From Chaetoceros tenuissimus (Eukaryota > Bacillariophyta > Thalassiosirophyceae > Chaetocerotales > Chaetocerotaceae), in contig BLLK01000051.1 in NCBI GenBank assembly GCA_021927905.1, positions 620,001 to 684,000 on the forward strand: 64,000 nucleotides of DNA. Direction: 5' to 3'. Shown one piece after another: positions 46,481 through 63,389 of the stretch; position 1 is the first letter of the stretch, and each line of letters begins with the position of its first letter. Below the pieces are notes generated by a model. The model was not told the DNA's origin and did no database searches. It was given only the letters and a program-made list of their open reading frames with translations. A program made the position numbers and the translations under genes.

Positions 46481-46981
46481 GATTATGGGGATTGGAACAT
46501 TACAAGATTCATACACATGATGCAATGATATATTTAGTAAACATATTTGATTTTCGATTAATATTTGGACACAAAGATTTCCTTTTGAGGTAAAAATAAT
46601 GTAAATAGCAATTAATCAATTCTAAAGAAGGATGAAGAGGAGCATAATGTATGTGATAGTTCAGAGTCAAATTAAAGCATGAAGAATATCGCGTTGCCTT
46701 CATGTTTTTATGAAAACAGTGTTTTAAAAGTGTAGGGTGATTGGAGTGAAGCCAATCTGAATATTACGTCGCTTGATTATGCAGATTGAAAATTGAAAGT
46801 AGGGGAGGCCATTTTCACGTCAAAAGTCTTTTGTTCTTTTTGCTTCTTTTTGGTTCTTTCCAACTGGGAGAGAAAATCGAATCATATATCAAGCGCATTC
46901 GTCGTCTTCACTCCACACTCTCTACCGATTGATCATTAAATCATTGCGGTAACGTAGAACACCATCTATCTTCGTCTGGCT
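46481..46981. other. intergenic, 5' region of MYND gene M1
   Basis: About 500 bp. It includes the MYND-cluster upstream element at 46806-46860; nothing else recognised. Confidence 0.5.
46806..46860 (+). promoter_or_regulatory. MYND-cluster upstream element, M1 copy
   Basis: GGCCATT followed by TTTGTTCTTTTTGCTTCTTT and TTGGTTCTTTC, about 120-175 bp before the M1 ATG. The same arrangement precedes M2, M3, M5 and M6 and in part M4. Confidence 0.6.
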
Positions 46982-48222
46982 ATGGGAAAGAAAGGAAAGA
47001 GAAGTAGACGCAAGGCAGTAACTGCTGCAGATCGAGGTAAGTTGCAATCGTCTAGGCGACAGCTAATCTCTTTGAAAGACCTGTGATGTAATATCGATTT
47101 GATTCACTACACTTTGTAATAGCCTCGATTGTTGCTTTGCAAACAAAAATTGATGAATCAATTGTCAAAATTAATGAAAGTGGTAACCTCCATCTTTACT
47201 CTGAAGCTGTTGATGAGCTAAGAGCACTAATCCAATTGATTGAGACTGAAATGCTCGAGTCAAGCAATACGATGCATGAGATGAAGAATTTACAAAGCTG
47301 GTTCTTTGAAACCAAAATGATAGCTTATTCGCATCTTATGATGGGAGAATTCGATCGTCACAACTTTGATGATGCAATTCAAATTTACAAGGAACATTTT
47401 GAGAGACGTAATATCGATATGAATATGAAGGTTTTGTACCCCCAGATTCCTAGCTTGCAATTGAAATACCACGAAGCTCTTTTGAGGCAAGGTAAAGGAA
47501 GCATAGATACCTTCATCTCACTCAGTAAGTCGTTGATTACCCATGGAAGAAAAGACATTGATGATCTTGAGATAGATTTGTATCGATATGCTGATTTTCT
47601 GAGGACAATAAAAAAATTTGACGCAGCAATAGTTCTTGGTAAACAATTGGAAGCACTAAGCGGCGACAGATTGTCATTAGCCACTACATATTTAGAGCAG
47701 TATATAGTTGGCGATAAATCCCTCCCTAAAGATGTCTTTCTATATATGAAACATGTGTTGCGGAAGCATGAGAAAAATCGTTTCTATACTGTCGGTTCTA
47801 TGCTGATGCTAGCACAATTGACTTATTTATTCCATCAATTTTACAGTAACACAGAAGTAATAATGAGGAAAGCTATTGGTTATGTCGAAGAGTACTTAGA
47901 TTGCATCTCGAAAGCAAAAATTCATTGCATTACATGCAATCAAACTGCAACTGAGTCTGATGTACAATTCGTCTGCAGTGGGTGCCGAGTAGCTTGCTAC
48001 TGTAGTATCGATCATCAACGCATGACTTGGAAAAAGGAAGCAGAGAAAGGGATGCGTTTTGGGCATGAGATTCTCTGTCCAGTGATGAAAGCTTACAGAA
48101 AGTGGAGACATGCACATGATAATGGTGACAATGACCGAGTATCAAGATTGAGACGACGTTTTGAGAGGGAATGTTTGTATTGTTTGTCAGATAGCCTTGG
48201 TCTGAGGGACAAGTGTTTCTAG
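46982..48222 (+). CDS. variant-MYND zinc finger protein M1
   Basis: Exons 46982-47036 and 47123-48222 (86-nt intron, phase 1), 384 aa. Exon 1 encodes only MGKKGKRSRRKAVTAADR, a basic head. The body (about 25-280) is helical and TPR-like, with motifs NFDDAIQIYKEHFERGN-type and KKFDAAIVLGKQLEALSGD. The MYND-like finger uses C287, C290, C303, C306, C312, H316, H333 and C337; the sixth ligand, normally Cys (YCSxxCQ), is His (YCSIDHQ). The loop between W321 and H333 is longer than usual. A conserved basic C-terminus (RLRRRFERECLYCLSD) follows. MYND fingers usually bind proline-rich partners; no SET or other catalytic domain is present. Function unknown. Confidence 0.85.
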
Positions 48223-48249
48223 AAGTAGAAATCATTCACATCTTTCTTG

Positions 48250-48720
48250 ATTCTTCAAACTCTTGGGAAGAAATAACAATAACCTAATACATTTCATTGA
48301 CTTTGTAGGTAGTAAAAGCAAAGTAAACCAATGACAATCTTGTCAATTTGTGTTAATCTGCAATAATTTCTACTTTCGTGGAAGATAGAATGTCTTTCTG
48401 AAGCTGTCTATTTGTACTACGAAAACACAATCATAATAATAGCATTTTTATTAAGAAGCTCCAAGCAGTAACAATAAGAATACTGCATATTATTTGGAAT
48501 AACTAGTAGCAACATATGAAGACCTCTTGCACGTAGCTATTAGATACTTCATTTTATCTCAGTGAAATGAAGATACAATAGTCTAAGTAAACCGTACCTT
48601 AGTCATTATCACTTTCTTAGAAGAGCTCTTTTCATATGCAAGGCCATTTCTGAAAAATTCGAAGTGGGACTGATTGTTCTTCCGGCTTCTTTTTGTTCTT
48701 TTGGCGCCAAAGTGAAAACG
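48250..48720 (+). repeat. intergenic homology block, M1-M2 copy
   Basis: Intergenic sequence between M1 and M2 that is collinear with 61480-61950 between M5 and M6. Shared strings include GGGAAGAAATAACAA, TTTCTGAAGCTGTCTA, AAGATACAATAGTCTAAGTA, AACCGTACCTTA and CTTTCTTAGAAGAGCTCTTT. Confidence 0.8.
48640..48703 (+). promoter_or_regulatory. MYND-cluster upstream element, M2 copy
   Basis: AAGGCCATTTC, then TTGTTCTTCCGGCTTCTTTT and TGTTCTTTTGGCGCC, about 160-220 bp before the M2 ATG. Closest to the M6 copy. Confidence 0.6.
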
Positions 48721-48861
48721 AAAGAATGAAAGCAATTGATTGAATTTGGTCAAAGCGATTCAGTACCTTCCTATTTCTAGTTACCACGGTGCTATTCTTC
48801 ACTCTAATTGACATAGAATAAATGAATAAATGTAGCACACCTTATCAACTTGTGTAATACA

Positions 48862-50076
48862 ATGGGAAAGAAAGGAAAGCGGAGTAGACGCAATGCTGCG
48901 AAGGAAAATGAAGACAAAAGTAAGTTCTATCGATGCTTACATTACCGAAAGCTCGCATGAAAATCATTCACCAAGAGCGTCTCTTTTCTAGTTGTTTTCA
49001 AGTGTAAGCAGCTTACGGACAGAGCAATGGCTAGCAATCAAAACATGTTGAAGTCCCAGGCCCGTAATGAATTGAGAGAAGCTATTCGAATTCTAAAGTC
49101 AATCGAGCACTCGAATAGCAAAAGAGTAATTGTAGCAATCCCTGTTCTTTATAGTATACTAATGGTTTGGTGTGTCAATGATTGTCACTACCATGCAGCT
49201 CTTGATTGCTACAAGTACTTTGAAATGCGTGGAGATATCCAGAGTATGGAAAGCGTGAAAGCTTATCATCATATGGAAAGCGTGAAAGCTTATCATCAGC
49301 TTCTCTTGTTGAGACTGGGACATCCAGAGTGGAATATTTCCCATATAATTGACTGGTTTGAATCTAAAACCAATTCCGACAAGAAACTTAATGGTGAAAT
49401 TCTCTTCCACATTGTGAGTGCACTTCGTGTCAATAAGGAATTTGAATCAGCCATCCTACTAGTGAAAATGTTTGGTGTCAAATATTGGGAACCATCCCAA
49501 CAAAATTTATCCTTAGCATTGACGTATCTAGAAGGCTATCGTTTAAATCATATCTTTATGGACTCAAACGATTTATATTTCTTTCAAGGTTACAATTTTC
49601 TGGAAGACCAACAAAATGGTTTGTATTTGATGGTGCTGAAGCTCTTTCTCCTACACAAACACTTCGACGAAGAAGAAAATATTGAGCAAGCTATTGCTCT
49701 CATTAAATTTTATCTCACGAACACTGACTTGCCATTTTCCGGTCTTGATGATAGCTTGGATGTGTGTCAAACTTGTGGTCAAGCTGTTACCAGAAACGAT
49801 GTTCAACTTGTTTGTAGTGGCTGCCACGTAGCTTGCTACTGTAGTCTCGACCATCAACGCATGACATGGAAGAAAGATGCGATACATGGAATGCGCATTG
49901 GTCATGAAATACTCTGTCCGCTTTATAAAGTATGCAGAAAATTTGTCTCTGCAACCAGGAATGGAGATGTGAAGAAGCAGGTAAAGATGGAAAAACGTTT
50001 GGACAGAGCATGTCTGAAATTTCTTTCTCATGGCTTAGGCTTGAAGGATAAGTGCTTCCCTTGTGAAAATAAATAG
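48862..50076 (+). CDS. variant-MYND zinc finger protein M2 (divergent paralog)
   Basis: Exons 48862-48919 and 48992-50076 (72-nt intron, phase 1), 380 aa. Exon 1 encodes MGKKGKRSRRNAAKENEDK. The helical body is much diverged from M1, but the finger keeps the spacing C278 to C328 with VACYCSLDHQRMTWKK, including the His replacement. The tail LDRACLKFLSHGLGLKDKCF matches the family. There is a perfect 27-bp in-frame tandem duplication (49246-49272 and 49273-49299, last base differing) encoding MESVKAYHH/MESVKAYHQ. Placed downstream of M1 as M6 is downstream of M5. Confidence 0.82.
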
Positions 50077-50248
50077 TGAACTGGCACTGCTTCGGAGAGG
50101 AAGGACAATTAGAAATTGAAGAAGTCTGGTAACATTTACTAGCATTTTTTTGAAAGCTACATTATTTACAAAGATTTTATGAGAGTCACTATATATATTG
50201 TGTTATTTTGGCAACTAGAGAAGAAATAGGTAGTCTAATTCTTGTTGT

Positions 50249-53200
50249 TTACAACCCACTATCATCTAGCTCAGCTAGCATAGTCTTGAACTTGTCATTC
50301 TTTCGTACGCGAGCAACCAAATCAGCAAATGTTGTACAGCTATTTCAATCAAGGTTTGTGAGATAGGGGACCAAATTTATCAAAGACATCAAAAATGCAA
50401 AATAAACTTACTTCATAGCATCCGTAACTTTGGAAAGAACTACCATGACCCTGACTGCACTCTTTACCCAATCCTTTGCTCTATCTAACTCAGCTCCCTT
50501 TTTGTTTCCCATCTTTTTATTCATAGTCTTTTCTAATGGAGCTACGAAGGTCTCAACAGCTGCAGCAATTTCACTTGGGTACTTTGAACTCATGGCAACA
50601 ACAATCTGATGAGATTGGAGTTGAACGTCTTCTTTATCTCCGAGACCTGAAGCTAGAATTGGTATGAATTCATTGATATCAATTGCTTGAGGACACTTGT
50701 CGAGGCATGTAGAGAAAATGCTGAGAGCAGCTTTTCTAATTGGCAATGCATCATCAACCTTTTGCTTGAACGGTCCGAGGTCAATGACTCTCTCCTCTTT
50801 CAGAACTGCAAGTCCGTGCAATGCTGGAACAATTGTCTCTTTCATGAATCCAAGTACAAGGTCGCTGTTGTGATGAACGGCAGAGTAAATCATTAACAGG
50901 CATGCATTCTTTACAGACAAGTCTTCTTCCTTTAGAAGCTGAAGAAAAGTTGGTATGTATGGAAGCACATGCTCCGTTTGACATTTGTTTGCAATAGCAT
51001 ACTTGACAGAACCAAGGACAGTCGCGCAGGTAATTGGGTCTTCGCCATTCATTTTAGCAACTACCAAACTTTGAAGATGAGGTAGAATGACGTTTGGTTC
51101 CAAGCATGCAAGACAACCCATGCAATCAGCAACCATGGTTCTAATTCCTTCTTCTTCATCAGCCAAATGACGATTGAGATGAGGGAGAATTTGTGCAATA
51201 CTTGGACCAATATTGCCCCCATACCCTTTCTGGTGACAATAAATCATTTCTTTGAGACCAGTCAGTAAGAGGTATTGTTTATTTTGGCCATTCTCCTCGA
51301 GAGCTGCTAGAATCTTTGGAAGGAATTCCTCTTTGGAGCACACTGATGCACGACCAAGACCATACGCTGCGGCGTGTTTAATATCCTCGAAAGCAGAGTC
51401 AAACAACGAGATAAAAATGCTATGAAGACGATCAGTTACTCCCGGAAGCAATCCAAGATGAACTCTACTGCCTAGATCACCTGATACACGAAGAGCGAGC
51501 TGGATATACGGGCAATTCTCAGTTGTTTGATTATCCTTGAGTGACTCGAGAGAAGAGATTAGATCTTCTACAACTGATTTTCTGTCGTCGTCACTCACAA
51601 CAGCTGTGATTGCGGCAATACATTTCGAAATGTTTGCAATGGATAGTTTACCACTTGGACTGTTCACTTGACCCTCAGTCAAAACAGGTAGACCATCTTT
51701 CAGCGCCTTCAAAAGATCTTCGAAGTTGACAACGTTTGAGGTAATCAGTTGCTCCATCACAACTAAGAGAGAGTCAAGAGCCTTGTCTTGTAATAGAGAA
51801 GATTTTGACAGATTGAGTAAGGAAGGAAGCAAGAAAGTTCTAATATCCGAGACTTCAGAATCGGATAATGTAACAGTAGTAAAAATTGTAGAGCAAACCT
51901 TGAGAGCCAAATGACTAACATGGAGGTCACTATCTACAATGCAATTGCTGATCTCCTTCAAAACATTACCATAAACACCGCCATTGACCCCAGAAGGACT
52001 TAGCGTTACAATAGTATCCAAGCACTGAAGGGTAGTCTGTAACAAAGAACGACTGCTTTGGCGACAAAGACAACCTAGTTCAGTGATGATATCATTGATG
52101 ACTGAAGATGTATCAACGTTGGCTTTGATAACTTTGGAGATTGTGCGGATGGCAAAGACTCGAGTATTGTCGTGCTTCAATCGCACTAGAATCAACGACA
52201 GCAATCTTTCTCTTGAGGCGACATCAACATATTCGTGCAGGTTAGAGAAAAGCGCTGCAGCTGCTTGTAAAGTGGTCTCCTTTACCCCCTGATCAGAGTC
52301 ATGCAGGGCTAGGCGAGGCTCAATGGCTTCATAAAGAGTTTTTGTAACAGATCCTTTCTCTTCTGCCGAAGCATTGGCATTGACAACAAGAGATGGTATC
52401 TCTGTTAGAATTTGGAGAGATTCAGCTGTGATCTTATACCAATTCTCTTGAAGAGTTTTGCAAAGCTCTGGTAAGATGTCCTCAATTATACAGTCTTTCA
52501 TACTCTCTGGTTTATGATTTGGAGATGTAATCACAGTATGGATACATTGCAAACTATCAAGCTTCAACGACTTGACAGATGCAGCACTAGTATCAGAAGA
52601 GCTAATGATATCTCTGACATGTCGTAGCAAAATCTTGATTTCTTCTTCATTTCCAATTCCACCTGGAGCTTTACAAAGTGTAGAGATTAGAGACAAAGCT
52701 GCTACCTTTGTGCGGTTTCCAGCCTTCTTTTCTTTTAGTTGAGCCTCACATCCCTTGACAACGAGAGGCGCATATTTTGTTCGAAGATCAATGACAGTAT
52801 GTGCTGCATCTCCTGTAACATCCATGGTATCATCAGACTTCAAAATAATATCTCCAGTCTTTGCCGCCTCGATGGTGTTCCCGAGTAAGGTAGAAAAGCA
52901 ATGTACAATATCAACACGGCAATTTTCATCACGCTCTTTGAATCTATTCACAAGTGCAGCTGCTACAGTAGTTTTGTATTTCTTATTCTTTCTCCACTCA
53001 TACTCTTCAGTCCAGAGCTTGGAAGGATCATTAGCTGCAATCTTGACAATTGCATTCAAAGTACGAATAGCACTTCTTCTAACATTCCAAGATTCATCGT
53101 CTTCTTGGTCGTCATCGTATTCGTCTTCGTCGTATTCTTCTTCTTCGTCGTCGTCCATATCATAGTCTTCTTCTGATCCTGCGTTATCATTATCATCTCC

Positions 53201-54596
53201 TTCAGAATTGTTTTCATCTCCATAGGAATAATTAGGATCATGACGCATGTATGCCAAAGCTGTGTGAATAATGACAGGTAAATACGGTTGAATTTCAACA
53301 GGCTTGCTCAATACAAAAGATTCGTATCCAAGCAAACAAGCTTCTCTCAATTCATTTGCCAAAGCGATAGCCTCTTCGTCTTCTTCGTCCGAATCTTCCA
53401 TCTCATCCGAACCCTCATCATCGTCATCATCATACATGTCATCACCTGCAGCTGCATCGGCAGGATCACAAAATCTAGAAAAGATTGGTACTAGACGATC
53501 AATCTGTTCCTGTCCTAGACGATGACCGACTTGACCAGCAACAGTACACATGGTCCGAATCAAAGCACAAGTATCCTTTGACTTGCAATCAATCAAGTCT
53601 TTATTATCAGCATCATTTCCCATGATTCTTCTTGATTTTCTCCTTCCACTTTTTCCAACAGCTTCGGAACGATCAATTTGCATTAGCAAACTCTCAACAA
53701 GTCTCCCTAGCAATTGATCCGAAATGACAATACTAAGATTCCCAATGGTAGTCCCTGCACGTTTCCTCACAAGTTCCGATTCACAAGCCAATTGTCTCAA
53801 GGTAACTTCCAACAAAGTCAAATGCTGCTGTGTAATGAAAGAAAGAGCTCCAAATCTAGCCAACAATTCAGTCAAAATCTCAAGACAAGCCAGGGTAATC
53901 TGCTCCGCTACAAGACTATCTTCCCTGATAGCTTTCGCCTTGTCTTTATTTTTAGAAGTCGCCTCGTACAAACTTGCTTTGGACAAAATATCCGGTGAAT
54001 ATTTCCGAATCCCATCGAGTAACCCAGCAGCTAATCTACTACTGACAATATCTCCCATGTTCATAGGAACAGTCTGTACCAATGTCCGAAGTCCAATAGT
54101 GTACACATCTCTCAATGCACCATTATCCTTGTCAAGAACGAGACTTGCAAGTCGTTCTGCAATCGCCACGACCATATCTTCATGGACGCAGGTAACCAGT
54201 ACCCCCAGAGTTTTGACAGCAATGGCTTGTACATCATTGGAAGAATCATCTACGAGACGTAAAACAGCGTCACAGATTTTCTTTTCGGATGCAAAGTCAA
54301 TCATTTGAGTTTGAGAATTGGAAGTAGCGGCGTTGGGGTCTTGATTCATGTCATGGTCTTCTGTGTTTCTTGTACGTGAGACGTTTCGTCCAGATGCAAT
54401 GGCGTGCTTTCGGAGTGCATCGCATAGATCCGATGTAGCCATGTAGCGTTCATCCTGTAGAGAGAGACAAGGTTAGGAATACAGAGTATCCATGGAAAAA
54501 AAGAGAAGGTATTGCTTTGATTGATTCATTCATTCGTACCTTATCGTAGTGCTCCGTCTTTTTCAAAAGATCAGAGATTGAGACGGCGTTTGACAT
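50249..54596 (-). CDS. CAND1: CAND1, cullin-associated NEDD8-dissociated protein
   Basis: Three exons: 54596-54540, 54454-50412, 50339-50249, giving 1,396 aa. Exon 1 encodes MSNAVSISDLLKKTEHYDK and joins DERYMATSDL, matching the CAND1 N-terminus. At the 3' end the long frame would stop at a TAA lying inside a GTAAGT donor; splicing a 72-nt intron adds 30 residues (NCTTFADLVARVRKNDKFKT then MLAELDDSGL). HEAT repeats run throughout. An acidic insert (EEEEYDEDEYDDDQEDDESW followed by NVRRSAIRT) matches the acidic loop of animal CAND1. The C-terminal TIP120 region is present. In other eukaryotes it exchanges SCF substrate receptors on cullin-RBX1. It interrupts the MYND array on the opposite strand. 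Confidence 0.92.
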
Positions 54597-55030
54597 TTTT
54601 CAAATGAGCCTCTATTGAATTGAATATTAAATCTCTAAACTGTTGAGTATAGAGAGAGTAAACAAGTCAAAAGTAGAATAGAAGCAATCAATCAAATCAA
54701 AGGCACATACATTCGCATCGTCTCTACTGTATTCAGATCTTTCACTGATCTTCTGTGGCGTTCTCAATCTCAGTTGTTGTTGGATCTTGATATTCATTTC
54801 TGGCCAGCTGCATTGCTATTTAGTAAAAATACCCCTCTTTTCTAGGGGGTAAAAATAGCATCCTACACAGCGACGGCAATACATAAGAACTTCGCTTCAA
54901 CAGAGAAGAACACAAATGAAAGATATCGAAATCTTTTCATTGGATGGCACTTACAAAGACATATTCCATACAAATACAAACAAACTACAAACATATAGAC
55001 ACCATTGCATCTCCTACATCGCTATAGAAA
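54597..55030. other. divergent promoter region
   Basis: About 430 bp between CAND1 (minus) and the SLOG-domain gene (plus). No ORF or RNA gene seen. Confidence 0.4.
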
Positions 55031-56006
55031 ATGTTGACAATCAATAGAGCGCTGTTTGGATCTTTGTTGCTGATATTTGCGGTACTGCACCATGTGGCAT
55101 CTTTTACATCACCTAGTTCTTCTACACGTCGCCATTCCATGAGAATTGTTGGACATTCACATCATTTGCAACCGACTCCTCAATCAAGACCTTCTTCTTC
55201 TAGTCTCTATGCAAACTCAAAAGAAAATGACGATAAAGATTCGGTATCTTCATCCGAGGCAATGGAAGAAACAAACGAATTACTAAATTTTGCAGGGGGA
55301 TTGGGAGAATTCGACCCGAACAAAAAGATTCCAATCAAGAGAGAGGTTCTAGTGGGTAATCCACAATTAAAAGTCAAGAAGAAGGATCAATCCGTTACAG
55401 CTATTTTACAAGAGTTGGCAAGTATTCAAAAACAGGGACCTAGGAAATATTGTATCTTGGGAACGAGGCATTGTAGTTATCTTCATCAGCAAATTATTGA
55501 ATTGTTGTAAGTACCTTTTATAGGGTGATTTGTCATTTTTCAAGTCAGCCTTGTTGTGTATAGAGTTTTTGAATAATGTTGCTCCAGTATTTCATTTTTG
55601 TATCTAATTCTCTCACATCGTCACTTGTTCTATTCCTAGATCATACGCATTGGTTCTATCCGAGAATCATGTCTACACTTCAGGAGCAGGAGGTACAAAT
55701 GCAGCAGCAATCAGAGGAGCTCTACGTGCAGAACGACCAGATTTGTTGACAGTAATTTTGCCACAGTCATTAAGTAAGCAATCCAAGGAGTCGCAGGAGT
55801 TGTTGAAGGATGTCACGGATTTGATTGCCATGCCTCAAAATGATGAAATGAGTTTAGATGTTGCTAGTAGGCTTTGTAATAGCAAATTGTTGAGTGAGAC
55901 GGATCAATTGATTGCATTTGCTTTTCATGCAAGTAATACTGTGATTGAAGCTACGAAGGAAGCAAAGAAGTTGGAAATGCTTGTAACTATGCTCTTTTTG
56001 GATTAG
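55031..56006 (+). CDS. plastid-type DprA/SLOG-domain protein
   Basis: Two exons: 55031-55506 and 55640-56006 (133-nt intron), 280 aa. Signal peptide (1-24) ending VAS-FTSP, with Phe at +1, suggesting plastid import, then a Ser/His-rich transit stretch. The domain at about 138-280 has a Rossmann-like SLOG layout: KYCILGTRHCSYLHQQIIEL, then NHVYTSGAGGTNAAAIRGA (a GG-containing nucleotide-binding turn), LLTVILPQSL, and a C-terminal helix (LIAFAFHASNTVIEATKEAK). Similar single-domain proteins occur in cyanobacteria and algae, and DprA-type domains bind DNA or nucleotides. The specific function here is unknown. Confidence 0.65.
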
Positions 56007-56686
56007 GAAATATTTGTTTTGGGATAAGAAAGAAGTATAGGCTATGATTTTGGAGCTATTTGAGATGGGAAGAGTGCAAATGCAAGGAAAGAAAAGTGCT
56101 TACTGGAATGGACATAATGGTGGTATTATAGAAGGATTGGTAATTGAAAATAAGAACATGACTACAGGGTACAGAAATGCATAGAAAGATTAATCAAGTG
56201 TAATTTCAATCATGTTGTAGTAGAGGAAGGTTTAAAAATGAAAACAGTGTATTCGTATAGATACGAACATAGCAAACGATATTCAAGAAAGCCTTGAATA
56301 TGCTTTCATCTTTAATGCCAACCAAAAATCAGCATCGAGTTTGAAGAAAGCTTGAACAGTTGCATGAGCATTTTTTCAATAAGCGATCTTGTGTGGAATT
56401 TGGTGAATTCATTGTTTGTTGGTCATACTTAAACGGAAAGTCCTATACAAAGAAGCATAAGGTAGCAGTCTTCACCTGTTGTTTCAACTTTAAAACCCAA
56501 TGTCAGGCCATTATTGACAAATGGCCTTCTGTTCTTTTGGCTTCTTTTTTGTTCTTTCCAGAACTGAGGGGGGAAATCGATTTTTCAATCGTCATCACTT
56601 TACACTCTCTACCAATTGATCATTCAAAATCGTTGGAATAATTAGATACTAATCGTACGTTTGGCTACAGCACCATCTATTCAGCT
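56007..56686. other. intergenic, 5' region of MYND gene M3
   Basis: About 680 bp. Contains the upstream element at 56500-56560; no other gene recognised. Confidence 0.5.
56500..56560 (+). promoter_or_regulatory. MYND-cluster upstream element, M3 copy with inverted repeat
   Basis: Inverted repeat GGCCATT / AATGGCC around a 7-nt loop, then CTGTTCTTTTGGCTTCTTTT and TTGTTCTTTCC, about 125-185 bp before the M3 ATG. Nearly identical to the M5 copy. Confidence 0.65.
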
Positions 56687-57951
56687 ATGGGGAAGAAAGG
56701 AAAGAGAAGTAGACGAAAGACAGTAATTGCTGCAGATCAAGGTAAGTTTCATTCGTGCAGGTGAAAGCTAATCTCTTTGAAAGACCTGTGATGTAACATC
56801 GAATCAATTCACTACACCATGCAATAGCTTCTGTTGTTACTGCGCAAACAAAAATTGAAGAATTGATTGAAAAATTTCAAAAAAGTCATGACCTCAATCT
56901 ATATTCTCAAGCTGCGGATGAGCTAAGGGAAGGAGTCCAAGTGGTTGAGGCAACAATGCTCGAGTCAAGCGATACGCTGTTTAAAATGAATCTTCAAGCT
57001 TGGTTCGTTGAAAGTAAGACATTATTTCTTTCGAATCTAATGGTGGTTGAGTTCGATCGTGACAACTTTGATGGTGCAATCCAAATTTATAAGAATCTTT
57101 TTGAGAGAGGTAATATCGATATGAATATGAAGATTCTATCGCCGATTTTTCCTACCTTGCAATTGCAATACCACGAAGCTCTATTGAGGCAAGGTAAAGG
57201 AAACATAGATACCTTCATCTCACTTAGTAAATCACTTATTTCTCGTGGAAGAAAAGAGAATCTCGAGCTGGATTTGCTTCGATCTGCCAATTTTCTGAGG
57301 ACAGTAAAACATTTTGACGCGGCTGTAGTTCTTGGTAAACAATTGGAAGAACTTATTGGAGACAGATTGTCTCTAGACACTACATATCTCGAGCAGCATA
57401 TTCATATAGGTGGTAATAAATCCCTCCCTGACGATTACTTTCTAAATATGGAGTATGTGTTACAAAAGTATGAGAATGATGGTTTTAATGCTGATAATGC
57501 CGGGTGCATGTTGGTGCTTGCACAATCAACTTATTTACTCCACCAGTTATCATCCGATCACTCAGAGGAAGTATTCAGGAAAGCTATTGTTTTTATTGAG
57601 GAGTACTTAGCTTCATTCTGGATATTTAAAAGTCATTGCAATACGTGCAATCAAACTGCAACTGAATCTGAGGTACAATTCGTATGTAGTGGATGCCGAG
57701 TAGCTTGCTATTGTAGTATCGATCATCAACGGATGAGCTGGAAGAAAGAAGCAGTCAGAGGGATGCGTATTGGACATGAGGTGTTGTGTCCAGTGATGAA
57801 AGCTTACAGAAGGTGGAGACATGCTTGTTGCAACGATAAGGATGATGAGGACGACAAGGTCTCAAGATTGAGACGACGATTTGAGAGGGGATGTTTGTAT
57901 TTATTGTCGGATGACTTGGGTCTGAAGGACAAGTGTTTCAAGAAGAAGTAG
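56687..57951 (+). CDS. variant-MYND zinc finger protein M3
   Basis: Exons 56687-56741 and 56828-57951 (86-nt intron, phase 1), 392 aa. Exon 1 encodes MGKKGKRSRRKTVIAADQ. The body is close to M1 and M4 (SQAADELREGVQVVEATMLE, NFDGAIQIYKNLFERGN, HFDAAVVLGKQLEELIGD). The finger spans C289 to C339 with ACYCSIDHQRMSWKK, again with His as sixth ligand. The tail FERGCLYLLSDDLGLKDKCF is conserved. The acidic insert KDDEDDK sits just before the basic tail. Confidence 0.87.
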
Positions 57952-58346
57952 ACACCATAGACAATATTTTAAATATCTTTTTGTGAGGTTCTAGTGTAGG
58001 CTGCCACATCCTCCTTGAAAGTAAACATGCGATAATAGAACAAAAACATTTTTTGTGTACCATAGTTATCTTGAGAAACAGTAATTTTAGAACATTGGAA
58101 TGAGATAGATAGTTATAGCATCACAGTTTACCTCATACCTTTTTACGGAAATAATATTTGCTGTTGAAAAAAGCAAAAGCAAATCAATTTCAAAATGTAA
58201 GGCCATTGTTGACATTGTATTCTTTCTGAACTGAGAAAGAAAATTGAAAATCAATCTTCAGTACACATTGTGTAGCAATCGATCATTCAATCATTACAGT
58301 GAAGTACAACACACCATCATATAACTAGAACTCCATCTATCTTGTC
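57952..58346. other. intergenic M3-M4, homologous to the M4-M5 spacer
   Basis: About 395 bp. Strings such as ATAGTTATCTTGAGAAACAGTAA and GAGATAGATAGTTAT recur in altered form after M4 (59720-59780), pointing to tandem duplication of M3/M4 with their 3' flanks. A shortened upstream element (GGCCATTGTTGACATTGTATTCTTTC) lies at 58201-58226; the pyrimidine repeat seen in the other copies is missing. Confidence 0.6.
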
Positions 58347-59595
58347 ATGGGTAAGAAAGGAAAGAGAAGTAGACGGAAGACAGTAACTGCTGCAGATCGA
58401 GGTAAGTTACCACATGAATGTGAAAGCTAACCTCTTTGAAACACCTGCGAAGTAACATCGAATCGATTCACTACACCATGTAACAGCATCTATTGTTGCT
58501 GTACAAACAAAAATTGACGAATTGATTGTCAACAAAACTATCAAGAGTTGGCGCCTCAGTCTTTTTTCTCAAGCTGCGGATGATATACGTGAAGGAATCC
58601 AATTGATTGAGGCAACAATGCTCGAGTCAAGTGATACCTTGCTCAAGATGAATCTACAAACTTGGTTCGTTGAATGCAAACAATTACTTTATTCAAATCT
58701 AATGCCTATCGAGTTCAGACGACACAACTTTAGCACTGCAATTCAAATTTATGAGAATCTCTTTGAGAGAGGTAACATCCAAATGAAGATTTCTTCTCCT
58801 AGGTTTCTTAGCTTGAAATTGCAATATTACGAAGCTTTCTTGAGGCAGGGTAAAGGAAGCGCAGATACCTTTATCTCGCTCAGTAAATTGCGCATTACCC
58901 ATTCTCATTCATTGAAACATGATGATACTCTTGAGAAGGATTTGATTCGATCTGCTGATATTCTGAGGACAACAAAACATTTTGACGCGGCTGTAGCTCT
59001 TGGCAAACAATTAGAAGAACTAACCGGAGACAAAGTTTCCCTTGCCACTACACATTTGGAGCAGTATTTAGTTGGCGATAAAGAATTTCTCCCTGAAGAT
59101 TTCGCATCAAATATAGCCCAATTGTTGCAGAAGCAAGATAATGACGGTACTGCTTCTTCCGCTTCTATGATGGTGCTTGCACAATTGACATACTTACTCC
59201 ATCAGTTATATGATGACACAGAAGGAGTGGTGAGGACAGCGATAGGTTTTATTGAAAGGTTCTTAGACTCGTTCTCGAGAGCAGAAACTCATTGCATTAC
59301 ATGCGGCCAAGCTGGTACCCCCACCGATGTACAACTTGTCTGCAGTGGATGCCGAGTTGCTTGCTACTGTAGTATTGATCATCAACGGATGAGTTGGAAG
59401 AAGGAAGAAGTGAAAGGAATGCGTTTTGGGCATGAGGTGTTGTGCCCAGTGATGAAAGCCTACAGGAAGTGGAGACATGCGAACGATAATGGTGATAATG
59501 AACGAGTCCCAAGATTGAGACGACGTTTTGAGAGGGAATGTTTGTATTTATTGTCGGATGGCATGGGTCTGAAGGATAAATGCTTCCAGAAATAG
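58347..59595 (+). CDS. variant-MYND zinc finger protein M4
   Basis: Exons 58347-58401 and 58487-59595 (85-nt intron, phase 1), 387 aa. Exon 1 encodes MGKKGKRSRRKTVTAADR. Body as in M3 (SQAADDIREGIQLIEATMLE, HFDAAVALGKQLEELTGD). The finger spans C288 to C338 with ACYCSIDHQRMSWKK; the first knuckle differs (CITCGQAGTPTD). The tail RRRFERECLYLLSDGMGLKDKCF is identical to that of M5 over most of its length. Confidence 0.87.
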
Positions 59596-60180
59596 ATAAT
59601 ATTGGATAGCTTTTGTATGTGAGGTTCAAGTAAAATGAAAACGGATAAAAACGGTTAGGCGCATTTTACTGTAGACTGCGATGGTCTGTTATCTGCCTTG
59701 AAAGTATAAAACTAATGTGTATAGTTATTTTGAGAAAGAGTATGTAACTTTAGACTATGAATAAGATAGATAGTCATTACATATAGTGCCTCAAGACTGA
59801 CAAAACGCTAGAATATCTGTATACTATAACAATAGCACTTCACAGTCAAAGCTAAAAGCGACCTTGACTGAACTTCGTGACTTTCCTTCTTTCAATGATT
59901 GATAAAGCAATACTTCAATAAAAAGTATTGTAGGCGCGGGCAGTATTCATCTGATCAAATCTGATGTTTCAACTTCAACTGAAACTCACTGAAACCCAAT
60001 GTCAGGCCATTATTGACAAATGGCCTTTTGTTCTTTTGGCTTCTTTTTTGTTCTTTCCAATACTGAGGGGGAAATCGAATTCTGTTCGTCATCACTTTCA
60101 CTCTCTAGAATAGTACATTCAACCGTTGGAGTAATTAGATACATAATCGTACGTTTTGCCAAAGTGCCATCTATCCAGTA
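59596..60180. other. intergenic, 5' region of MYND gene M5
   Basis: About 585 bp, with homology to the M3-M4 spacer in its first part and the upstream element at 60001-60060. Confidence 0.5.
60001..60060 (+). promoter_or_regulatory. MYND-cluster upstream element, M5 copy with inverted repeat
   Basis: GGCCATT / AATGGCC inverted repeat, then TTGTTCTTTTGGCTTCTTTT and TTGTTCTTTCC, about 120-180 bp before the M5 ATG. Confidence 0.65.
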
Positions 60181-61472
60181 ATGGGAAAGAAAGGAAAGAG
60201 AAGTAGACGGAAGGCAGTAACTGCTGCAGTTCAAGGTAAGTTGCAATAGTGTAAATAAAAGCTAATCTCTTTGAAATCGATTCGATTGCTTACACCATTG
60301 TAGCATCTATTGTTGCCGTGCAAACAAAAATTGAAGAATTAAATGTCAAATTTGAAGAGAGTTGGCACATCAATCTTTCTTCTCAAGCTGCGGATGAGCT
60401 AAGAGAAGGAATCCAATTGACTCAAAGACAATTGCTCAAACACGAGTCAAGCAGTACCTTTAGGATGAATCTACCAACTTGGACATGGTTCGTTAAAAGC
60501 AAATTGATTGCTTATTCTAATCTAATGGCTGTTGAATTTGATCGTCGTAACTTTGAAGGTGCAATTCAGATTTATGAGAATCTCTTTCAGAAAGGTAACA
60601 TCAAAATGAAAATGGAAATTCTGTCGGATGTTTTTCCTTCTTTGCAATTGCAATATCACGAAGCTCTCTTGAGGCAAGGGAAAGGGAACATAGATACTTT
60701 TATCACGCTCAGTAAAGTGCGTATTAGCTATGGAGGAAAAGACGATAATCTTGAGGGTGATTTGTTTCGATCTGCCAATTTTCTGAGGACGACAAAACAT
60801 TTTGACGCAGCAATAGTTCTTGGCAAACAATTGGAAGAACTAAATGCAGACATAGAGCCCCTAGCAACATCGTATTTAGAGCAGTATTTGGTGGAATATT
60901 ATCCCAAGTTTGGTAGGAAAATCAAGTCTCTCCCTGAAAGCTTTGAAAACATCTTTATAGATATGGGCGACGCTTTTGGAAATATGGTAGAGAAGTATAA
61001 TAATGGAGGTTTCGATACTTCTGTGGATCCTGAAACTTTACTGGTACTTGCACAATGGATATACTTACTCCATCAGTTTTCATCCGATGACAAAGAAATA
61101 ATGATGAAGAAAGAAGCGATTGGTTTTATTGAAGATTACTTAGATTTGATCTCGAAAGTAGAAACTCATTGCAGAACATGCACGCAAACTGCAACTGAAT
61201 CCGAAGTACAATTAGTATGCAGTGGATGCCGAGTAGCTTGTTACTGTAGTATCGATCATCAACGGATGACTTGGAAAAAGGAAGCAGTCAAAGGAATGCG
61301 TTTTGGGCATGAGGTACTTTGTCCAGTGATGAAAGCCTATAGAAAGTGGAGACATGCAAACCATAATGGTGATCATGAGCGAGTATCAAGATTGAGACGA
61401 CGGTTTGAGAGGGAATGCTTGTATTTATTGTCAGATGGCATGGGTCTGAAGGACAAGTGTTTCAAAAAGTAG
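60181..61472 (+). CDS. variant-MYND zinc finger protein M5
   Basis: Exons 60181-60235 and 60304-61472 (68-nt intron, phase 1), 407 aa. Exon 1 encodes MGKKGKRSRRKAVTAAVQ. It is the longest member, with about 20 extra residues at about 215-240 (VEYYPKFGRKIKSLPES region). The finger spans C308 to C358 with ACYCSIDHQRMTWKK; the tail matches M4. Intron 1 retains the TAATCTCTTTGAAA block shared with M1, M3 and (as TAACCTC) M4, supporting recent common ancestry. Confidence 0.87.
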
Positions 61473-61479
61473 ACATCAC

Positions 61480-61950
61480 TGATTTCTTTCTTAAAACTTT
61501 TGGGAAGAAATAACAAACCGTTAAATTTCATGAAGTTTGTAGGCATGAAAGGCTTTAGTAAGCCAATGACAAGTTTTGATCTATAATAATTTGTATTTCC
61601 ATGGAAGATTGCACGTATTTCTGAAGCTGTCTAGAACCACAACGAAAGTACAATAATAATAATAATAACAGCGTTTTTATAAACAAGCTCCAGCAAGTAA
61701 TAGCTAAATAAACATATCATTTGAAAATAATTTAGTGTCATCCATAAACGAACTAGACATATGGAGACCTCTTGCTCATAGCTTACAGATACTACATTTA
61801 TCTCAGTCGAAATTAAGATACAATAGTCTAAGTAAACCGTACCTTAATCATTTTCACTTTCTTAGAAGAGCTCTTTTCACGCAAAAGGCCATTTCTGAAA
61901 ATTTCGAAGTGGGATTGATCGTTCTTTTTGCTTCTTTTTGTTCTTTGGCG
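61480..61950 (+). repeat. intergenic homology block, M5-M6 copy
   Basis: Collinear with 48250-48720 between M1 and M2, diverged by substitutions and small indels. It includes the upstream element of M6 at its end. Confidence 0.8.
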
Positions 61951-61953
61951 CCA
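61884..61953 (+). promoter_or_regulatory. MYND-cluster upstream element, M6 copy
   Basis: AAAGGCCATTTC, TCGTTCTTTTTGCTTCTTTT and TGTTCTTTGGCGCC, about 170-240 bp before the M6 ATG; closest to the M2 copy. Confidence 0.6.
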
Positions 61954-62124
61954 AACCTGCACTATTCTTTTCAAGCAAGCAATTTTCATGTAATCACTTC
62001 AACAACTTTTACTTCCATAACACCATAGACAGATAGCCAAGCAAGTGTAGCACAGTTACAAAGAAGGAAACAATATTGTACTTGTTTTAAATAAGTACCT
62101 AGGGACAAAGGATCTATTCAAAGC

Positions 62125-63389
62125 ATGGGCAAGAAAGGGAAGCGGAATAGACAAAAGGGTGAAACTGGTAGGCAAGCTAGGGAGAAGAGTAAGTTCTGGA
62201 TCTATTTTTAATTATCCTAATAATTAAAATGTTTCTTGACTTCCTCACCAAATACAATTCGCAAGGACTGGTTGACAGCTTCTATGCAAGACTTGATAAA
62301 GTTCAGGCTGAAACGATACTTGATCAAAAAAGTAATTTGTTCTCTAAAGTCATGAAAGAGTTAGAAGAGTGTATTGACTTCATCGAAACGAAGCAGGATG
62401 CGATCTTTAGACTCGAAAAATGTGCAAACAACCATCAATACTTCTTCTACCGGGTTTCATTTGTCTTTTCCTACCTCGTTATCATTTACTACCGCGCCTA
62501 CAAATACGAGAAGATAACTGCTGTCGTCGAGAAGTTTCTTTTGATGGGCCAGCAAAAAGGGAATGATACGACAAAAATTCTGTTGAGTAATCAGCATTCT
62601 TTCAGCCTCATTTTCTTTTCTCGACTTTCTAAGTTGAGAGAGGGAGAAACAACTGTAGATGACTGTATCTCTCAACTCAATAGCTGGTCGTCCATTATTG
62701 CACAGATGGAAGATAGTGTCGAAGACATTACTCATGCAATGATGGAAGCAGCAGTTACAGAATTGATGTTGATGAAGGAATTCGATAAAGCCGTAGTTGT
62801 CGGTAAAAAAATGGAACAGCTTACTGGTGATAAAATGGCCCTAGCCAGAATATATTTTGAGCAGTATCGACTTGGTATATGTGATCATTCACTTATTCAC
62901 AACTTCATGCCATGCCCACTAGATGATGATTATATACACAAAGATGGATTCAACCAAAAAAGATATTCTCAAGATTTGCTAGTCCATGCACAATGGGACT
63001 TCGTCTTTCACAAAGAGGCGAGTAGGATGGCTGTCTTATGGATTGAGGCATTCGTGCAAGTAATTTGCAAAGACCGCAATTGCGGATCATGTATGCAAGC
63101 AGTCACTGACTCCGATGTACCTTTTGTTTGCGGCGGATGCCGAGTTACTTGTTATTGTAGCCTTGATCACCAACGTCTAAACTGGAAGAAAGACCCATTG
63201 AGAGGTATGCGTATTGGTCACAAACTTCTCTGTCCAATGATGAATGCTTATCGAAAATGGAGACAAGCAGAAGATGTTGGTAACGAAGAAGCAGTAAAGA
63301 AGTTGAGAAGACGCTTCTTGATGGAAATACTATACTTTTTGTGTCATGGGTTGGGACTAGAGGAGAAATGCTGTCAGGAGGAGGTGTAA
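62125..63389 (+). CDS. variant-MYND zinc finger protein M6 (divergent paralog)
   Basis: Exons 62125-62188 and 62266-63389 (77-nt intron, phase 1), 395 aa. Exon 1 encodes MGKKGKRNRQKGETGRQAREK. The acceptor (GCAAG) was chosen by frame and by intron length like its paralogs; the frame is also open upstream to 62229. The body is strongly diverged from M1-M5. The finger spans C294 to C344 with TCYCSLDHQRLNWKK, again His for Cys, and the tail LRRRFLMEILYFLCHGLGLE is recognisable. Positional counterpart of M2. Confidence 0.8.

What the first reader, a model, noticed from the sequence alone, without database searches (positions are those of the whole stretch)
46982..63389. Six-gene cluster of two-exon TPR-like/variant-MYND proteins
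M1-M6 are all on the plus strand and share one architecture: a 55-64 nt first exon encoding MGKKGKR..., a phase-1 intron, a helical body and a C-terminal MYND-like finger with a conserved basic tail. No catalytic domain is attached. A locally expanded, co-oriented family with conserved upstream DNA is the best candidate here for a lineage-specific system, perhaps transcriptional or protein-interaction adaptors.
Basis: partly seen in the sequence, partly recalled or inferred. Interest (0 to 1): 0.75.

Follow-up and report, generated by a model that had tools for sequence, protein, structure and literature searches.

The report
Diatom TPR-MYND family with shared promoters
The six genes belong to a larger diatom gene family whose predicted protein-binding part changes fast, while its zinc finger, tiny first exon and a set of promoter motifs recur, which looks like a set of jointly controlled adaptor proteins of still unknown use.

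Summary
Six plus-strand genes (46982-63389) each have a 55-64 nt first exon encoding MGKKGKR..., a 68-86 nt phase-1 intron and one large exon; Chaetoceros tenuissimus records are identical for four. AlphaFold2 gives a TPR-like solenoid, a variant MYND finger and two tail helices. No catalytic domain was found.

It is not a private cluster: M3 matches 92 places in the 41 Mb genome. Every organism-named homologue returned is C. tenuissimus.

New here: (1) A promoter cassette: of 39 upstream regions 28 have GGCCAT, 26 a CT-rich element, 18 TTGGCGCCAA (shuffled means 1.29, 0.18, 0.01). TTTGGCGCCAAA, cited as the JASPAR E2F1 motif, occurs 27 times genome-wide, 18 just upstream of family genes. (2) Similar distal promoters sit on proteins mostly 32-40% alike, suggesting recombination. 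(3) The solenoid evolves fast (dN/dS 0.58), finger plus tail slowly (0.22).

Best reading: co-regulated adaptors with variable target-binding solenoids and a constant docking finger; unproven. An infection-response role (IFIT-like) is possible but untested.

The parts
46982..48222 (+). M1: exon 1 46982-47036, intron 47037-47122, exon 2 47123-48222; 384 aa
   Evidence: identical to NCBI record P0006
48862..50076 (+). M2: exon 1 48862-48919, intron 48920-48991, exon 2 48992-50076; 380 aa; divergent protein clade
   Evidence: tree
56687..57951 (+). M3: exon 1 56687-56741, intron 56742-56827, exon 2 56828-57951; 392 aa
   Evidence: identical to NCBI record P0007
58347..59595 (+). M4: exon 1 58347-58401, intron 58402-58486, exon 2 58487-59595; 387 aa; protein modelled by AlphaFold2
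   Evidence: identical to NCBI record P0001
60181..61472 (+). M5: exon 1 60181-60235, intron 60236-60303, exon 2 60304-61472; 407 aa
   Evidence: identical to NCBI record P0009
62125..63389 (+). M6: exon 1 62125-62188, intron 62189-62265 (acceptor uncertain), exon 2 62266-63389; 395 aa; divergent protein clade
   Evidence: model of the exon-2 open frame; tree
46807..46855 (+). M1 promoter: GGCCAT 46807 and CT-rich element 46833-46855; no palindrome
48642..48711 (+). M2 promoter cassette: GGCCAT 48642, CT element from 48684, palindrome TTTGGCGCCAAA 48700-48711
56506..56549 (+). M3 promoter: GGCCAT 56506, CT element from 56539; no palindrome
58201..58206 (+). M4 promoter: GGCCAT only
60005..60048 (+). 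M5 promoter: GGCCAT 60005, CT element from 60038; no palindrome
61887..61955 (+). M6 promoter cassette: GGCCAT 61887, CT element 61921-61943, palindrome TTTGGCGCCAAA 61944-61955

Best explanation
M1-M6 belong to an apparently lineage-restricted, genome-wide family of adaptor proteins in the diatom Chaetoceros tenuissimus. Shown (by sequence or prediction): a basic N-terminal tag from exon 1, a predicted TPR-like solenoid, a variant MYND finger with its candidate zinc ligands kept and two conserved tail helices; a recurring promoter cassette; fast solenoid and slow finger evolution. Inferred: the solenoid's variable surface binds different targets, while the constant finger and tail dock on one common partner and the basic tag brings the protein to nucleus or nucleic acid. 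The cassette (an E2F-like palindrome plus two further elements) switches many members together. Recombination near the cassette lets a common promoter be joined to different bodies.
Confidence: 0.55

Rival explanations
1. An intracellular infection-response family that works like vertebrate IFITs: TPR proteins from tandem two-exon genes with a minimal first exon and a common inducible promoter element, here aimed at the diatom's ssDNA and ssRNA viruses.
For: Layout like that of IFIT genes (PMC3688568, passages): tiny exon 1, one large exon, clustered copies, a common element in the promoter, lineage-specific expansion. The host coexists with two viruses (PMC12305248, abstract). Fast body evolution.
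Against: No sequence link to IFIT was found; that IFITs lack MYND is recalled. The shared element resembles an E2F site, not an interferon element. The word MYND does not occur in the infection paper (count 0 in the listing); its supplements were not readable, so family genes may still be in its tables. No relative in viral contigs.
Confidence: 0.17
2. Cell-cycle adaptors: the palindrome is a true E2F/DP site and the family acts in S phase, for example at replication or chromatin.
For: TTTGGCGCCAAA is given as the JASPAR E2F1 motif in PMC11580471 (passages). E2F-DP-related factors are reported for two diatoms (PMC4686930, passages). Basic N-terminus.
Against: Two thirds of the exact palindromes sit at this one family: 18 of 27. 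A general S-phase site should also mark replication genes; none was recognised at the 7 remote sites, although those ORFs were judged by eye and half-sites were not tested.
Confidence: 0.15
3. Neutral drift: a birth-and-death family of dispensable duplicates with a relaxed solenoid, promoter likeness being mere recent duplication.
For: Broken copies exist (stops inside matches). Body dN/dS does not exceed 1 on average. Segmental copies, e.g. the DNA upstream of M2 and M6 at 80% over 851 nt.
Against: Finger and tail are constrained in the ten paralogues tested. The elements persist in two orders. Environmental relatives interleave with own members, some as close pairs, so several lineages have been kept for some time.
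Confidence: 0.13

Closest known systems
MYND zinc-finger proteins (Pfam PF01753), expanded in diatoms and green algae
   Same: Finger with C-x2-C, C-x2-C, CYC, HQ, W, H-x3-C ligands; expansion in C. tenuissimus (PMC8613185, passages), Fragilariopsis cylindrus (PMC8991070 citing Mock 2017, passages) and Edaphochlamys (PMC8226300, one passage)
   Different: Eleven residues between W and H, histidine before Q where common MYND fingers have cysteine (recalled), constant tail helices, weak Pfam scores, promoter cassette
Alpha-solenoid plus MYND proteins of green algae (PMC13126933, passages)
   Same: Helical-repeat body with MYND, species-specific expansions
   Different: Those are computed candidates for organelle factors in Archaeplastida; here no organelle signal was tested and no homology was shown
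IFIT family of vertebrates (PMC3688568, passages)
   Same: TPR fold, tiny first exon, clustered copies, shared promoter motif, lineage expansion
   Different: No MYND (recalled), different promoter motif, no detected sequence homology; a likeness of layout only
LGN/Pins and bacterial Rap TPR proteins
   Same: TPR solenoid, best structural matches
   Different: 11-15% (LGN/Pins) and 5-8% (Rap) identity in the rows listed; no MYND there (recalled)
SMYD methyltransferases
   Same: MYND together with a TPR-like C-terminal domain (PMC4307310 and PMC4414169, search listing only)
   Different: No SET domain here; here MYND follows the solenoid

Membership tests
MYND zinc finger (PF01753) | Score above Pfam gathering cut-off 22.7 | tested here: inconclusive
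   4 of 6 exon-2 frames above, M1 21.4 and M5 22.6 below
MYND zinc finger (PF01753) | Complete set of zinc-ligand positions | tested here: met
   Invariant C288 C291 C304 C307 C311 C313 H317 H334 C338 in 41 aligned sequences; spacing pattern in 56 of 62 proteins, one of the 56 with x11 in place of x12
MYND zinc finger (PF01753) | Binding of proline-rich partner motifs | not testable with these tools
   Recalled property of known MYND domains; no assay
TPR solenoid | Antiparallel helix pairs forming a TPR-like superhelix | tested here: met
   AlphaFold2; structural matches, with the caution printed there
TPR solenoid | TPR sequence profile | tested here: not met
   No TPR Pfam model above cut-off; best is TPR_BSK1_C in M4, 17.3 bits against 42.2
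SMYD methyltransferases | SET domain | tested here: not met
   No SET match in six exon-2 frames at E <= 1
IFIT family | Detectable sequence homology to IFIT | tested here: not met
   Profile search of PDB sequences listed 2 matches at E <= 1, neither an IFIT; three protein searches returned none
IFIT family | Two exons, minimal exon 1, clustered copies | tested here: met
   layout of IFIT genes from PMC3688568; here exon 1 encodes 18-21 residues, in IFIT only the start codon and two bases
IFIT family | Induction by infection | not tested
   Data exist (PRJDB19534) but cannot be reached
E2F-regulated genes | E2F motif in promoter | tested here: met
   Core TTGGCGCCAA in 18 of 39 upstream regions
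E2F-regulated genes | Binding by E2F/DP and S-phase expression | not testable with these tools
   No binding or expression data

The most novel reading that the evidence does not exclude
A diatom-specific intracellular recognition repertoire: dozens of TPR-MYND receptors with diversifying solenoids under one common inducible promoter that also serves as a recombination hinge, so that new bodies are brought under the same switch. It would be a unicellular-alga counterpart to IFIT or other polymorphic recognition families, answering virus infection.
Probability: 0.13. Interest if true: 0.85.

Novelty: new variant of a known kind. Interest (0 to 1): 0.52.

Why it matters
MYND expansions have been counted in diatoms and green algae, but no role was given in the passages seen. 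This gives one such expansion a testable handle: a largely family-bound promoter motif set that predicts co-expression, a variable part and a constant part. If the published infection RNA-seq shows joint induction, it becomes a candidate inducible recognition system in a marine primary producer; if S-phase expression, a lineage-specific set of cell-cycle adaptors.

Tried and rejected
Gene conversion of the finger as the reason for its likeness: rejected, as pS is about equal in body and finger. Viral origin or viral copies: 13 pattern matches in viral contigs, none a relative; BFVD gave nothing at E <= 0.001, the top rows being mostly TPR, SNAP and Sel1-type repeat proteins. A homologue outside Chaetoceros: three protein searches (51, 50 and 51 rows) gave only C. 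tenuissimus and records without an organism name; these searches need shared 5-residue words and may be cut near 50 rows, so absence elsewhere is not proven. A solved homologue: none credible (best E 0.03, a designed repeat protein). Long inverted repeats as a sign of a mobile element: six imperfect pairs of 25-31 nt, none framing a gene. Positive selection: not shown. Foldseek and VIA-align lists name no specific function; families not listed there are not excluded. A print record of this family: searches listed MYND papers; in the passages opened there was no description of it, and no held paper has Chaetoceros, tetratricopeptide and MYND together; only open-licence PMC papers are held and not every listed paper was opened.

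Limits and rows dropped: protein searches, Pfam and the M6 model used the open frame of exon 2, which begins inside the intron, so the first residues (about 24 in M6) are intron-derived (searches used spliced records). One search found 49 ORFs, pieces of one broken gene counted apart. One search used ORFs of at least 360 aa (36) and 10 of those for 45 pairs, intron-derived codons included; one search starts at residue 19 and excludes them. One search left out environmental proteins under 280 aa and P0016, and used the quick method. One search used 35 genes with a start and at least 300 aa. One search used the top 51 of the 92 matches and 44 of the 69 starts; its binomial figures treat related copies as independent, so I do not quote them. 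The palindrome count of 18 of 27 is 17 plus C16:3490577, whose gene start (MGKKSRR) the start pattern misses and which one search places at -171.

Full report
The window is C38:620001-684000 of a 41.03 Mb, 68-contig genome. Identity of the spliced M1, M3, M4 and M5 proteins with NCBI records names it Chaetoceros tenuissimus, a diatom (taxid 426638). The published genome (PMC8613185, passages) is of strain NIES-3715, 41 Mb, with models made by BRAKER2 from RNA-seq mapped with TopHat2, so the four identical models are probably RNA-seq-informed; I saw no reads.

Observation. Six genes on the plus strand share one layout: exon 1 of 55, 58, 55, 55, 55 and 64 nt, GTAAGT donors, phase-1 introns of 86, 72, 86, 85, 68 and 77 nt, one large exon 2, proteins of 380-407 aa. 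A CAND1-like gene (minus strand, PF08623 and PF25782) and one further gene lie between M2 and M3. Pfam sees only a weak MYND at profile positions 1-34 of 39, and none of the 150 scored PF01753 matches (of 378 candidates) of the genome falls in this window. The likely reason: the finger reads C-x2-C-x12-C-x2-C-x3-CYC-x3-HQ...W-x11-H-x3-CP (56 of 62 proteins held, one of them x11 for x12). From memory, ordinary MYND fingers have a cysteine before the Q and a much shorter W-to-H gap.

Family. The M3 exon-2 frame matches 92 places at E <= 0.001, several with stops. The exon-1 pattern finds 69 starts against 0 for its reverse. In 20 fetched regions plus the window, 49 family ORFs (pieces counted apart) were found, 39 with a recognisable start. 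Arrays occur on C38 (four places), C16, C34 and C8 among others. In a tree of 36 own and 30 environmental proteins the two sets interleave (23 label changes; shuffled mean 21.9), with several tight own-environment pairs, so much of the expansion seems older than the split from those relatives (quick method). No homologue with another organism's name was returned, within the limits given under Tried and rejected.

Evolution. In 45 pairs of ten close paralogues, body dN/dS is 0.37-0.88 and finger plus tail 0.10-0.37. Pooled: 0.58 against 0.22, with pS 0.355 and 0.369. The drop comes at about residues 290-300. A stretch at 153-180 and a four-residue loop (239-242) exceed 1. Equal silent divergence argues against recent homogenisation of the finger. 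Diversifying and relaxed evolution of the body cannot be told apart with ten genes.

Promoter cassette. Within 350 nt upstream of 39 first exons, GGCCAT occurs in 28, a CT-rich element in 26 and TTGGCGCCAA in 18; 17 have all three, 8 none; dinucleotide shuffles give means of 1.29, 0.18 and 0.01. The motifs were read off these same regions, so the shuffles overstate. The 350 nt downstream of 49 family ORFs have 5, 4 and 3, some of which may belong to the next gene's promoter. Of the 17 full cassettes, 10 read GGCCAT-CT-palindrome and 7 GGCCAT-palindrome-CT, which plain inheritance of one block does not explain. Genome-wide, the 23-nt CT element with up to two mismatches has 24 sites (reversed control 0), 20 just upstream of family-type starts or bodies. 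A shorter 18-nt form has 16 sites at up to one mismatch, 15 of them at family genes by position, but 79 at up to two mismatches against 14 for the reversed control. The 12-nt palindrome has 27 sites: 18 upstream of family genes, one more inside a family array (C38:924930), one beside another CT site (C34:3720917) and 7 elsewhere. Those seven show no family ORF in 2.5 kb, though one (C32:987536) has the whole cassette in reverse and another (C59:550083) a CT-like stretch beside it. Eight 3.1 kb loci of other MYND genes have no palindrome, but GGCCAT in 3 and the CT pattern in 2; the first 46 kb of the window has GGCCAT 9 times, CT once, the palindrome never. TTTGGCGCCAAA is given as the JASPAR E2F1 motif in PMC11580471 (passages). 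In the window, M2 and M6 have all three elements, M1, M3 and M5 two, M4 one.

Promoter exchange. M2, M6, C38:984635, C16:3484991 and C16:3489105 have distal promoters (-350 to -120) 79-88% identical over aligned bases (56-72% with gaps counted), while nine of the ten protein pairs are only 32-40% identical (the tenth, M6 with C16:3484991, 57%). The other 35 pairs among the ten genes compared gave 61-78% (43-62% with gaps counted), so the contrast is clear on aligned bases and weaker with gaps. Over 595 pairs of 35 genes the mean distal identity is 0.67, and distal identity correlates with protein identity at 0.13, the proximal 120 nt at 0.52 (all). In six cross-clade comparisons the homology block ends within 5 nt of the palindrome's 3' edge in four, short of it in one, and runs on 50-60 nt in one. 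C38:984635 looks chimeric: distal promoter like M6, 5' region and exon 1 like M3 and M5. I read this as recombination between paralogues in or near the cassette; the block ends are BLAST ends, not mapped breakpoints.

Mechanism. Shown: architecture (part predicted), cassette, contrast of rates, promoter-body mismatch. Inferred: the solenoid binds varied targets, the finger and tail one shared partner, the basic first exon directs the protein to nucleus or nucleic acid, and the cassette gives joint expression. What the targets are is open. The infection reading rests on likeness of layout to IFIT genes (PMC3688568, passages) and on the host's known viruses (PMC12305248: abstract and sections 3.2 and 3.4); the word MYND is not in that paper (count), and its supplements could not be read. 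The cell-cycle reading rests on the E2F motif alone; the DNA virus raises replication-gene transcripts, so the two readings could coincide.

Known versus new. Higher MYND counts in this species than in three other diatoms are published, as are MYND expansions in F. cylindrus (review passage), in green algae and among alga solenoid proteins. In the searches named I found no description of this subfamily, its variant spacing, the cassette or promoter exchange. I rate it a new variant of a known kind, of moderate interest now.

Noticed in passing
G000:C17:1199700-1263613: A second cluster of 16 exon-1-like starts (MGKKSKR type) with none of the CT or palindrome sites; perhaps a sister family under other control.
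   Followed up: no
L061:1216-1256 (C32:987536): All three cassette elements in reverse orientation with no family ORF within the 2.5 kb fetched; an orphan promoter or a non-family target.
   Followed up: partly
C34:3718037 and C34:3720917-3720952: Two CT sites and one palindrome near a broken family fragment (C34:3721175-3721414); possibly a decayed array.
   Followed up: no
Other MYND genes on C58 and C32: Several other MYND ORFs show two MYND matches about 230 nt apart in one frame, so double-finger proteins occur repeatedly in this genome.
   Followed up: no
C38:834306, C48:260129, C34:983994, C16:846875, C44:651928: Broken or partial family copies, signs of birth and death of genes.
   Followed up: partly
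window 55028-56006: A two-piece plus-strand gene between CAND1 and M3 with no Pfam match at E <= 0.01; its N-terminus looks like a targeting peptide by eye.
   Followed up: no
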